The position numbers and the translations under genes were made by a program. 8,519 nt of DNA from assembly GCA_002279765.1 (NCBI GenBank), contig NCCR01000177.1, positions 7,558 to 16,076 on the forward strand. The letters are read 5' to 3'. Position 1 is the stretch's first letter. Every line of letters begins with the position of its first letter. Positions 1 to 8,519 of this stretch are shown here, piece by piece. This stretch comes from Verrucomicrobia bacterium 12-59-8 (GTDB lineage Bacteria; Verrucomicrobiota; Verrucomicrobiae; Verrucomicrobiales; Verrucomicrobiaceae). The notes beneath the pieces are model-generated. The model saw only the letters and a list, made by a program, of their open reading frames with translations. It searched no databases and was not told the origin of the DNA.

Positions 1-290
1 GTGTTTGGTTTGAACCCGCACCCCTCACAAAGAGGCTTCTTGTGTTTTGTGTACTCTCTATCCTTTTCTTTGTGGCGAAGCCTAACGCCACCAGAAGCCA
101 CTATTTTGGCACGATAGTTTCTGGTAGAGCATCGACCACACCTAGGAGCGAATCTTGGAAATCCGTCTCTTCCGATGTTTTTTCTTTCTTGTTTGTTCTC
201 TTTGCAATCTACGCACATTCCCTGAATCGTTATTGGCTCAGGCTTGAGACTCCTGACGAACGTTCCGTTTTGATTCCTTGCTATTTGCAT
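1..290 (-). CDS. HNH endonuclease with zinc-ribbon N-terminus (3' end cut by window edge)
   Basis: This open frame runs from ATG at 290-288 to the left window edge without a stop; 96 residues are visible. Two CxxC pairs (Cys26/Cys29 and Cys51/Cys54) lie about 22 residues apart and make a zinc-ribbon-like unit. A basic stretch follows (residues 70-85), then a third CxxC in the context LCEGCGFKPN (residues 87-96). A CxxCGF motif of this kind normally opens the zinc-binding core of phage HNH endonucleases, just upstream of their catalytic His-containing motif, which would lie outside the window. Upstream, the frame is closed by a TAA at 345-347 with no other ATG or GTG, so ATG 290 is the likely start; AAGAG about 9 bases upstream is a weak Shine-Dalgarno site. 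It lies downstream of the capsid operon terminator. Such genes are often free-standing homing endonucleases. The catalytic part is unseen, so a non-nuclease zinc-ribbon protein remains possible. Confidence 0.72.
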   Translation of the reverse strand, partial: MQIARNQNGTFVRSLKPEPITIQGMCVDCKENKQERKNIGRDGFPRFAPRCGRCSTRNYRAKIVASGGVRLRHKEKDREYTKHKKPLCEGCGFKPN

Positions 291-3664: not shown

Positions 3665-4096
3665 CTAGACGCGAGTGTACTTGGTGATGTCAGAAATGAC
3701 GCCCTCAACGGTATCGTCATTGATAATGCGCAGCTCAATGCCGGTGACGCGGGACTGAATGCGAGTGCCAGAGTAGGACTTGAACAGAACCCAATCGCCC
3801 TCTTTGCACCATGGGCCGTTGGGGAATTTGCGCTTGTCCATGTAGGCGTCAGAGCCGACCTTGGCGACGTAGCCCATGCACGCAGCAAGCTTCTCTTTTT
3901 CGAGAAGGGCAGGATCGATATGGATTCCGCCGTCGCTACGCTCCTTCATCTTCGGGAGCACAATCAGAATGCGCCAGCCCGAGACGTCAACGTTACGAAC
4001 AGCTTCCTCAACAACATCAACAGCGTGAGCGTCATACGCCGCCACGGCTGAGGTAGGGCCAATGGCAGGTTTAGGGAGCTTAGTCAGATCAAGCAT
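3665..4096 (-). CDS. GroES-like co-chaperonin (phage Cpn10)
   Basis: A 143-residue protein whose residues about 40-135 match the Cpn10/GroES beta-barrel. The entry strand is GWRILIVLPKMKE (40-52). A mobile-loop-like SDGGIHI segment (54-60) follows, then MGYVAKVGSDAY (74-85, equivalent to GroES 'GxVxAVGxG'). Next come WCKEGDWVLFKSYSGTRI (96-113, equivalent to 'vkvGDxVlFxxyxGt') and LRIINDDTVEGVI near the C-terminus (equivalent to 'iixExDIlgvi'). GroES-type proteins cap GroEL and define the folding cage. Phage versions such as T4 gp31 replace host GroES to fold large capsid proteins, which fits its place between portal and scaffold genes. Unusual: about 38 residues precede the barrel, and the loop reads Ile-His-Ile where E. 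coli GroES has Ile-Val-Leu. Start ATG 4096 has only a weak GGA seven bases upstream; 24 bases separate it from the previous stop. Confidence 0.85.
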   Translation of the reverse strand: MLDLTKLPKPAIGPTSAVAAYDAHAVDVVEEAVRNVDVSGWRILIVLPKMKERSDGGIHIDPALLEKEKLAACMGYVAKVGSDAYMDKRKFPNGPWCKEGDWVLFKSYSGTRIQSRVTGIELRIINDDTVEGVISDITKYTRV

Positions 4097-7047: not shown

Positions 7048-8519
7048 CTAGAAAACCGAATAATAACTGTTGGATTTCTTTTTGGTGTCTGGACCGTCGC
7101 TCCAGTCCTCATCGCGCTCCAGTCGAATAACGCCGCCTTGGCGGGCCGTCTGGATAGCCTGAGTCCCTGAGTCAACGTAGTCATCGCCGTCTTGAGCGTT
7201 GGGAAACGCTTCAAACTGCTCTATGACCTTTTTCGTCTCATCGTTGCTGATATACCATACCTGACCGGACTTGAAAATATCACTAATTGCGTTTACGCGC
7301 AATATCTTGTCATTTTTGGCGCGGCCCGGCTGGAAAGGCGTAACCGGAAGCCCCTTCATTCTGAGCTCTGGAATCAATGAGGTTCCCTGAGCGGTGTTCT
7401 CAATCAGGAGGCAGTCAGGCTTGAACTTGTCGAAAAGCCGCTTGGCTTCGTTCTTCAGGTCTGGGAATTCGAGCCTCCCCCGGAATGCGTCAATCAGCAT
7501 GAACTGCGGGTAAAGCTTACCTCCGGGGCCAGCCTTCATGAACATGCCCCAGGTACTACACGCAGAGTAGTTGGACCGAGTATTCGCCGTTGTGGCTGTG
7601 TCCCAAGATTGAATAATGTATTCAAAATCTGGAACCTTGCCGTCTTTGTCAACGTCCCACTCGCGCCACCAGCTAGCCTTGATGAGGGCCGCCGCAACCG
7701 AGACAGGGCTCTGCTGATACTGAGCCGACCAGCGCTGAATCGGGAGCTCGTCCCTGATCTTCTCAAGTTCCTTGATGCTCCAGAACTGCGGCCACAAGGC
7801 CTTGCCGCTCGGCAAAATTGCAGGGAAATCAATGACTTCCCACTCACCCTCTTCTCCGCGATCCTTGGCCGCCTTGATGACTTGGCCAACAAGGTCGCGC
7901 TGCGACCAGCGCGTCACGCAGATGATGATGGCTCCGCCCGGCTGAAGACGCTGGCGGGCCAGCATGAACCAACTCATGGCGCGATCGTAGATGGATTGGT
8001 CGCCAGCCTCAGCCGAGAGGGCCTCGGCTTCGGTGTGCGGGTCATCGATTAACAACAAATCTGCCCCTCTGCCAGCGAGGGCACCGCCCATGCCGACAGC
8101 ATAGTATTCGCCAGCGGCGCTGGTATTCCACCTTCCGGCAGCGGTTGAGTCCGCCGCCAGCTTCACGTCATTAAAAACCGCCTTGTAGTCGGGCGTCTGC
8201 ATAAGGTTCTTGACCTGACGGCCAAAGCCCTGCGCGAGTTCCGCGGTGTTGGAAACCTGCATGATTTTTCGTTTCGGATATTTTCCGATGTACCAAGCCG
8301 GAAGTATTACTGAAGTGTTGACGCTCTTTGAGTTATGCGTAACAATGTAACCTCTTCCAGCCAAGAAGAGGCCGTCCTCGCGCTCAACAGTTATGCAGCG
8401 AGTCGGGACAGTGTCCACCGCCACAACGGAGCGGATGTATCTATAAGGCCTCGCGGCGTCGTACGTTCTTTCGTTTTTTCTAGGCAGGTAGCAAGAATCT
8501 TTCATGTAGAAAATGACAC
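7048..8519 (-). CDS. terL: Terminase large subunit with intein (5' end outside window)
   Basis: TerL is the packaging motor: an ATPase that pumps DNA through the portal and a nuclease that cuts the concatemer. The frame stays open to the right edge, so the gene starts beyond 8519; the ATG at 8505 lies inside the intein and is not a real start. Counting from that Met, residues 1-58 are intein and the extein resumes at Ser59. Ser59-Lys-Ser is the end of the Walker A P-loop. Walker B is LLLIDDPH (150-157, Asp-Asp in place of Asp-Glu). The coupling motif is CVTRWSQRDLVG (196-207). RNase-H-like nuclease motifs follow: QSWDTA (Asp302), LLIEN (Glu369) and DGDDYVDSGTQA (Asp442/Asp445). GRLEFPDLKNEAKRLF and the IEN-x-AQGTSLIPELR region are typical of the T4/P22-like TerL group. 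It ends SNSYYSVF and is followed 15 bases later by the portal gene. Confidence 0.93.
   Translation of the reverse strand, partial: VIFYMKDSCYLPRKNERTYDAARPYRYIRSVVAVDTVPTRCITVEREDGLFLAGRGYIVTHNSKSVNTSVILPAWYIGKYPKRKIMQVSNTAELAQGFGRQVKNLMQTPDYKAVFNDVKLAADSTAAGRWNTSAAGEYYAVGMGGALAGRGADLLLIDDPHTEAEALSAEAGDQSIYDRAMSWFMLARQRLQPGGAIIICVTRWSQRDLVGQVIKAAKDRGEEGEWEVIDFPAILPSGKALWPQFWSIKELEKIRDELPIQRWSAQYQQSPVSVAAALIKASWWREWDVDKDGKVPDFEYIIQSWDTATTANTRSNYSACSTWGMFMKAGPGGKLYPQFMLIDAFRGRLEFPDLKNEAKRLFDKFKPDCLLIENTAQGTSLIPELRMKGLPVTPFQPGRAKNDKILRVNAISDIFKSGQVWYISNDETKKVIEQFEAFPNAQDGDDYVDSGTQAIQTARQGGVIRLERDEDWSDGPDTKKKSNSYYSVF
8332..8519 (-). mobile_element. Intein C-terminal splicing region inside terL Walker A
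   Basis: The last 40 or so residues before Ser59 form a standard intein C-terminal splicing domain. RYIRSVVAVDTVPTRCITV leads into EDGLFLAGRGYIVTHN, matching blocks F and G (D-x-LFLA-x-G-x-IVTHN). The penultimate His and terminal Asn (8335-8337 and 8332-8334) are the catalytic pair for Asn cyclisation, and Ser at +1 (8329-8331) is an allowed nucleophile. The sequence splits directly into the terminase P-loop (S-K-S), so it must be excised to give a working ATPase. Only the C-terminal piece is present; the N-terminal splicing blocks and any homing endonuclease domain lie past 8519. Residues YLPRKNERTYDAARPY just upstream belong to the intein and not to the terminase. The motif assignment is established knowledge of inteins; splicing activity is inferred. 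Confidence 0.9.

What the first reader, a model, noticed from the sequence alone, without database searches (positions are those of the whole stretch)
8332..8519. Intein interrupts the packaging ATPase exactly at its P-loop
The terL frame reads ...LFLAGRGYIVTHN followed immediately by SKS and then normal terminase. THN/S is an intein C-terminal junction, and S-K-S is the tail of a Walker A motif (many relatives read PPRHSKS or similar). Insertion there disables the motor until the intein excises itself, so packaging depends on protein splicing. P-loops of essential phage ATPases are known favoured intein sites. The sequence outside the window decides whether this is a full intein with endonuclease, a mini-intein or half of a split intein. 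The last option is worth checking because the visible piece is a clean C-terminal domain.
Basis: partly seen in the sequence, partly recalled or inferred. Interest (0 to 1): 0.75.

Follow-up and report, generated by a model that had tools for sequence, protein, structure and literature searches.

The report
Class 3 intein in phage terminase
The gene for this phage's DNA-packaging motor carries a self-removing protein insert (an intein) in its ATP-binding loop; the insert looks like a member of an already known class that many environmental phages share, so this is a well-supported but ordinary new member.

Summary
Confirmed, with two corrections. The minus-strand TerL frame (7048-8517) opens with 62 residues of an intein C-terminus ending CITVEREDGLFLAGRGYIVTHN, followed by +1 Ser and KS of the P-loop. 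147 of 219 collected relatives carry an insert at this point, PPRH|[S/T/C]KS; in 68 of 80 related viral loci one open frame holds N-extein, intein and C-extein. First correction: it looks like a class 3 intein. It has the block F Cys (C41) and block G Thr of the WCT motif; 160 of 160 relatives that reach block B have the Trp, and 109 of 142 start with Ala, none with Ser. C41 aligns with the catalytic Cys of a solved class 3 intein. Second: it is very probably not split. Its first 24 visible residues match the end of the endonuclease region of continuous relatives, and the ATG at 8505 is an internal codon without a visible ribosome site. The N-terminal half lies beyond the window and was not recovered, so Trp, block A and endonuclease core are inferred. 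P-loop inteins and class 3 inteins in phages are published. New member of a known kind.

The parts
8332..8517 (-). Visible C-terminal 62 residues of the intein (V1..N62), open at the window edge
8446..8517 (-). Residues 1-24 (VIFYMKDSCYLPRKNERTYDAARP): match to the end of the endonuclease region of relatives
   Evidence: aligned with FYA[KS]D...LPRKEERT of full-length relatives, about 10 residues past the end of the Pfam LAGLIDADG_3 match in P0012; absent from the mini-inteins P0020 and P0035
8332..8445 (-). Residues 25-62: C-terminal splicing region, blocks F and G
   Evidence: TIGR01443 match to residues 39-62; 6rix match to residues 24-62
8395..8397 (-). Cys41, block F position 4, predicted initiating nucleophile of class 3 splicing
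   Evidence: Cys in 166 of 166 aligned intein rows, window included; aligned with residue 124 (Cys) of 6rix
8332..8340 (-). Thr60-His61-Asn62: block G Thr of WCT, penultimate His, terminal Asn
   Evidence: Thr in 166 of 166 and His in 154 of 166 rows
8329..8331 (-). [quoted passage not shown]
8503..8505 (-). ATG, internal Met5 of the visible piece; not a credible gene start
   Evidence: upstream GTGTCATTTTCTAC has no Shine-Dalgarno-like stretch (read by eye); the aligned residue inside relatives is A 110, L 30, M 13 (window included) and others, of 166 rows
7048..8331 (-). C-extein: TerL from SKS of the P-loop through the Terminase_6C nuclease domain, stop included
   Evidence: PF17289 E 1.1e-10; phrog_38 E 1.2e-81

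Best explanation
The window ends inside a continuous class 3 intein, most likely with a LAGLIDADG homing endonuclease (expected total about 320-345 residues, from relatives), inserted in terL between PPRH and SKS of the P-loop. Shown: a C-terminal splicing region with block F Cys, block G Thr, His, Asn and +1 Ser; the end of the endonuclease region; continuity of the arrangement in relatives. Inferred: after translation of the TerL-intein precursor, Cys41 attacks the bond after the N-extein's PPRH, the N-extein passes to +1 Ser, Asn62 cyclises, and TerL is joined as PPRHSKS, restoring the Walker A loop. Until then the ATPase site is split, so an active motor should form only after splicing. 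The endonuclease would cut intein-free terL alleles at the P-loop codons during co-infection and spread the insert by repair.
For: 147 of 219 collected relatives have an insertion at this exact site. Trp of WCT in 160 of 160 rows that reach block B, Cys in 166 of 166, Thr in 166 of 166 (148 site-a rows including the window, 18 site-b rows). Block B most often reads DGEHLW (94 rows), the DxxH form that PMC6195587 describes for class 3 (passages). The only PDB hits of the 64-residue piece are replicative-helicase chains, Cys on Cys in 6rix; the mini-intein relative P0035 hits 6bs8 at 4.9e-14. LAGLIDADG_3 passes its cut-off in P0012, P0010, P0123, P0121 and P0208, 5 of the 7 relatives scanned; P0001 (no intein) and P0035 (mini-intein) lack it. 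One open frame through N-extein, intein and C-extein in 68 of 80 viral loci. Of the 12 misses, L024 is also one frame at this site, L050 and L062 begin at their contig edge, and nine (L072-L080) carry a class 3-like insert near the P-loop of other terminases. Intein-free alleles: P0001, 90% identical, PPRHMKS, and syntenic contig L081.
Against: The window's own N-terminal half, Trp and endonuclease core were not seen: no genome is held and the window's end is not in viral contigs by exact match. Relatives were gathered with terminase and with one of these inteins as query, so counts overstate uniformity. Asn and the S/T/C at +1 were required by my junction finder, and Thr by the pattern. One viral locus at the same site, L024, has Gly in place of the block G Thr, so Thr is not universal. 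0 of 80 genome loci met the single-frame pattern; I did not examine them further. The two inspected loci L246 and L248 are the same contigs as L039 and L056, already among the 68, so only L245 is new. No splicing was measured.
Confidence: 0.9

Rival explanations
1. Split intein: the frame is an independent C-half starting at ATG 8505, the N-half fused to the N-part of TerL elsewhere.
For: An ATG lies 14 bases from the edge; the window does not show the N-half.
Against: No Shine-Dalgarno-like sequence; residues on both sides of the ATG align with the interior of continuous relatives, 12 of which also have Met there. 68 of 80 viral loci are continuous. Five relatives are N-truncated; for one of them (P0036) the closest contig, L245, reads continuously, the other four were not checked. 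A profile of the N-terminal intein part finds nothing in the window (best E 1.3).
Confidence: 0.03
2. Mini-intein or intein with a decayed endonuclease: splices but cannot home.
For: Two relatives are mini-inteins (P0020, P0035). The endonuclease core of the window's intein is not visible.
Against: The window keeps the end of the endonuclease region, which both mini-inteins lack.
Confidence: 0.1
3. A class 1 intein with a nucleophilic first residue.
For: The N-terminal residue is not visible; 9 of 142 relatives start with Cys; inserts at other TerL sites (about 163, 177, 224, 468) look class 1 by eye.
Against: Cys41 and Thr60 match the class 3 pattern of all 147 relatives aligned at this site, and the solved sequences it hits are, as far as I can match entry codes to papers, class 3 inteins.
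Confidence: 0.03
4. A degenerate intein that no longer splices, leaving this phage defective.
For: Cannot be excluded from a C-terminal fragment.
Against: The visible splicing residues are intact and the TerL frame is open and 90% identical to an intein-free relative.
Confidence: 0.03

Closest known systems
Class 3 DnaB inteins of M. smegmatis (DnaBi1) and M. chimaera (DnaB1); PDB entries 6bs8 and 6rix (that these codes are those inteins is partly recalled)
   Same: Block F Cys and block G Thr, +1 Ser, and for DnaBi1 insertion in a P-loop whose serine is the +1 residue (PMC6195587, passages).
   Different: Host protein is a phage terminase; the full-length relatives keep an endonuclease that DnaBi1 lacks.
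TerL1-a and TerL1-b inteins of mycobacteriophages (PMC5050341, passages)
   Same: P-loop insertions in TerL; [quoted passage not shown]
   Different: Other terminase type. TerL1-a lies between the invariant Lys and Thr; here the insert lies two residues earlier. That survey gives TerL6 a single site, in the C-motif.
P-loop TerL inserts of Bacteroides phage B124-14, Porphyromonas phage005b, Gordonia phages YungMoney and Verity
   Same: In-frame insert with HEW in block B, block F Cys and a following Ser (read by eye).
   Different: Inserted after GK, two residues later; 29-31% identical over the matched part.

Membership tests
Intein | C-terminal block G ending His-Asn followed by Ser/Thr/Cys | tested here: met
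   THN|S at 8329-8340; TIGR01443 above cut-off
Intein | N-terminal blocks A and B in the same frame | not testable with these tools
   beyond the window; no genome or longer contig found. Present in relatives
Intein | Inserted in a host protein that exists without it | tested here: met
   PPRH-x-KS or its like is uninterrupted in 71 of 72 proteins without a site-a insert (the exception, P0127, is another terminase with its own insert) and in 80 of 80 loci L081-L160
Class 3 intein | Cys at block F position 4 | tested here: met
   C41, aligned with Cys at residue 124 of 6rix
Class 3 intein | Thr at block G position 5 | tested here: met
   T60
Class 3 intein | Trp at block B position 12 and no required nucleophile at residue 1 | not testable with these tools
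   Outside the window. Relatives: Trp 160 of 160; first residue not C/S/T in 133 of 142
Class 3 intein | Block F branched intermediate in splicing | not testable with these tools
   needs biochemistry
LAGLIDADG homing intein | LAGLIDADG core | tested here: inconclusive
   Only 24 residues of the region are visible; they match relatives that have the core
Split intein | Two separate genes with their own starts | tested here: inconclusive
   No ribosome site at ATG 8505, no N-half in the window, continuous relatives, but the rest of the genome was not available
Terminase large subunit, Terminase_6C type | P-loop ATPase plus RNase H-like nuclease domain | tested here: met
   PF17289 for the nuclease domain, phrog_38 over residues 63-468

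The most novel reading that the evidence does not exclude
The class 3 chemistry makes packaging a redox checkpoint: oxidation of the initiating cysteine (C41) would hold TerL unspliced and the motor off until the cell is reducing again, as reported for the P-loop class 3 DnaBi1 intein of M. smegmatis (PMC6195587, passages). The evidence here does not exclude this, and nothing here tests it.
Probability: 0.08. Interest if true: 0.55.

Novelty: new member of a known kind. Interest (0 to 1): 0.25.

Why it matters
It adds an environmental group to the P-loop terminase inteins that is rare in the phage records searched: 3103 records matched the full TerL-intein query, but only 1 of 50,697 had a place covering 80% or more of it, at 27% identity. 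Practically, such an intein need not begin with Cys or Ser, so a search for the N-terminal half by that rule could miss it.

Tried and rejected
Extending the contig: no genome is held, an exact search of viral contigs with the last 52 bases found nothing, and a single-protein search of viral contigs with the window's TerL found no relative. Metagenome scans were capped at zero.

Idea that the window's intein moved from the second TerL site (IDDPH|S), because its last 22 residues resemble site-b inteins. Mean identity is 50.1% to 147 site-a and 49.7% to 18 site-b inteins. In the tree of full inteins 17 site-b inteins form one clade (support 0.97) without the window, which branches at the base of a clade of 120 site-a rows (0.77). 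In a tree of the 62 columns alone its place is unresolved, next to a mixture of both sites. Three rows were dropped from the full tree (mini-inteins P0020 and P0035, short P0121_b). Rejected for lack of support.

Donor of the diverged flank: the first try printed nothing because its pattern failed; repeated, the best matches over 26 residues are P0005 and P0001, 19 of 26 each, so no donor was found.

Two steps I do not count as evidence: the full-intein profile searched against the window contained the window's own fragment, so its hit is circular; and the junction patterns printed no match for the named phages, whose inserts I then read by eye.

No structure prediction or fold search was run.

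Full report
What is there. The minus strand of the window carries a packaging and capsid module: TerL (8517-7048, open at the edge), portal (7032-4492), a 123-residue protein, a GroES-like protein, three proteins of unknown function, and a major capsid protein. The TerL frame has no stop. Its first 62 residues are not terminase: the seven closest phage records (42-46% identical) align from residue 62, though among the 40 listed the weaker ones start anywhere from 3 to 72; phrog_38 aligns from 63 and syntenic L081 from 61. They end in THN, followed by S-K-S of the terminase. One PHROG terminase profile, phrog_36964 (890 positions), matches residues 8-95, that is, across the junction (E 1.2e-7).

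It is an intein. The piece scores above the NCBIfam cut-off for intein C-termini (TIGR01443, 18.1 against 15.6 bits); that model did not match four of five related inteins given in the same call, so it is a weak guide here. Searching the protein database with residues 1-64 gave 8 of 12 candidates at E <= 1e-3, best 1.6e-18, all with terminase domains (two of the domain names recalled). The whole protein finds TerLs with and without an insert (7999 of 8000 scored candidates pass, the best 120 are listed). From three searches I collected 219 distinct proteins: 147 have an insertion at the window's site, 18 at a second site IDDPH|S, fewer elsewhere; 63 have none detected, one of which (P0127) is a different terminase with an insert that the TerL profile could not see. 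At the window's site the flank is PPRH or a variant such as APRH or GPRH on one side and [S/T/C]KS on the other, so the insert lies in the Walker A loop, just before the residue that precedes the Lys.

It looks like a class 3 intein. Published definition (passages of PMC5050341, PMC7664689, PMC5222942, PMC6195587): no required nucleophile at residue 1, and a Trp-Cys-Thr triplet in blocks B, F and G, the Cys starting the reaction. In 166 aligned rows (142 full and 5 truncated at site a, 18 at site b, and the window) Cys and Thr are present in 166, and Trp in all 160 rows that reach block B. The first residue at site a is Ala in 109 of 142, Cys in 9, never Ser. The window shows the Cys (C41) and the Thr (T60). 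The 64-residue piece hits three PDB sequences at E <= 10, all named replicative DNA helicase: 6rix, 6riy and 6bs8. PMC7664689 and PMC6195587 describe crystal structures of the M. chimaera and M. smegmatis class 3 DnaB inteins; that these are the same entries is partly recalled. In the alignment C41 falls on residue 124 of 6rix, the number PMC7664689 gives for the catalytic cysteine. Cautions: my junction finder required Asn followed by S, T or C, so those features are conserved by construction; Cys, Thr and Trp were not required. One viral locus at this site, L024, has Gly where the others have the block G Thr.

It is very probably continuous, not split. Residues 1-24 (VIFYMKDSCYLPRKNERTYDAARP) align with the end of the endonuclease region of full-length relatives (ISFYAKDVAHLPRKEERT in P0012, starting about 10 residues after the Pfam LAGLIDADG_3 match ends) and are missing in the mini-inteins P0020 and P0035. 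The ATG at 8505 is the fifth codon of this stretch, with no Shine-Dalgarno-like sequence before it by eye; 12 relatives also have Met there inside the frame. In 68 of the 80 viral loci, PRH, the insert and [STC]KS lie in one open frame, inserts 320-345 residues long, 64 of 68 with a GLMDTDG-like LAGLIDADG motif (the pattern required Thr in block G). Of the 12 misses, L024 is one frame at this site but without that Thr; L050 and L062 begin at the contig edge; L072-L080 carry class 3-like inserts near the P-loop of other terminases. None of the 80 genome loci met the pattern and I did not examine them. One N-truncated relative on a 65-kb contig (P0036) could have been a split gene; its closest viral locus L245 is continuous. 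The two others inspected, L246 and L248, are contigs already counted as L039 and L056. A profile of the N-terminal intein part finds nothing in the window (best E 1.3).

Empty site and mobility. The nearest intein-free relative P0001 is 90% identical over 88% of the query and reads PPRHMKS. Contig L081 carries 7 of the 9 window genes in the same order with an uninterrupted TerL, also PPRHMKS. Of 72 collected proteins without an insert at this site, 62 have Thr, 5 Met, 2 Ser and 2 Gly before KS, and P0127 lacks the motif. The five with Met (P0001, P0002, P0003, P0004, P0006) are among the window's closest kin; P0005, 73% identical and without an insert, has Ser. So a residue that the intein can use as +1 is common at this site without any intein. 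The first 25 TerL residues after the junction differ from P0001 at 7 of 25 positions against 29 of 355 further on (Fisher p 0.005), and from P0002 at 9 of 25 against 43 of 355 (p 0.003), while P0001 and P0002 differ there at 2 of 25 against 41 of 355. Against P0004, P0008 and P0009 the effect is not significant (p 0.20, 0.20, 0.19). Eleven pairs were tried after seeing the pattern, and no donor was found. It is what gene conversion of the flank during homing would leave, but it is weak.

How it most likely works. Inferred from class 3 chemistry: C41 attacks the N-terminal junction, the N-extein passes to +1 Ser, Asn62 cyclises, and PPRHSKS is restored. The unspliced precursor has its ATP-binding loop broken, so packaging should wait for splicing; this was not tested.

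What is known. [quoted passage not shown] PMC7886860 (passages) reports inteins in TerL of crAss-like phages, one TerL with two. Four cultured phages fetched here have P-loop TerL inserts with HEW and a block F Cys, placed two residues further on, after GK (read by eye). Searches showed me no paper that describes the exact PPRH|[S/T]KS site, but I saw their hits only as listings or passages, and Tori and Perler 2011 on class 3 inteins was not held. I call it a new member of a known kind.

Noticed in passing
P0001-P0219 (relatives of the window's TerL): TerL is an intein hot spot: 34 of 219 proteins have two or more insertions, one (P0186) three resolved ones; sites lie at the P-loop, about profile positions 163, 177, 184 (IDDPH|S), 224 (|TRW) and 465-468. 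By eye the inserts at 163, 177, 224 and 468 lack the block F Cys and most begin with Cys, so class 1-like and class 3-like inteins share one protein.
   Followed up: partly
window 7048-8331: The TerL stretch next to the junction is more diverged from the two closest kin without an insert than the rest, possible flank conversion; weak and post hoc.
   Followed up: partly
window 3665-4096: GroES-like co-chaperonin gene (PF00166 E 1e-6, phrog_3188 E 3.2e-12) inside the capsid module, between portal and capsid genes, also present in order in L081 and the other syntenic loci listed.
   Followed up: no
window 3-290 (-): Cysteine-rich ORF running off the left edge, reminiscent by eye of a zinc-ribbon HNH endonuclease start; no Pfam family above cut-off, no convincing PHROG match, and not among the genes matched in L081.
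   Followed up: partly
L241, L242, L243, L244: TerL genes of Bacteroides phage B124-14, Gordonia phages YungMoney and Verity and Porphyromonas phage005b carry P-loop inserts with class 3-like residues; their annotations name only a terminase.
   Followed up: partly
L072-L080: Viral contigs with class 3-like inserts (H-E-W or similar block B) in more distant terminases, several right after GK of the P-loop.
   Followed up: no
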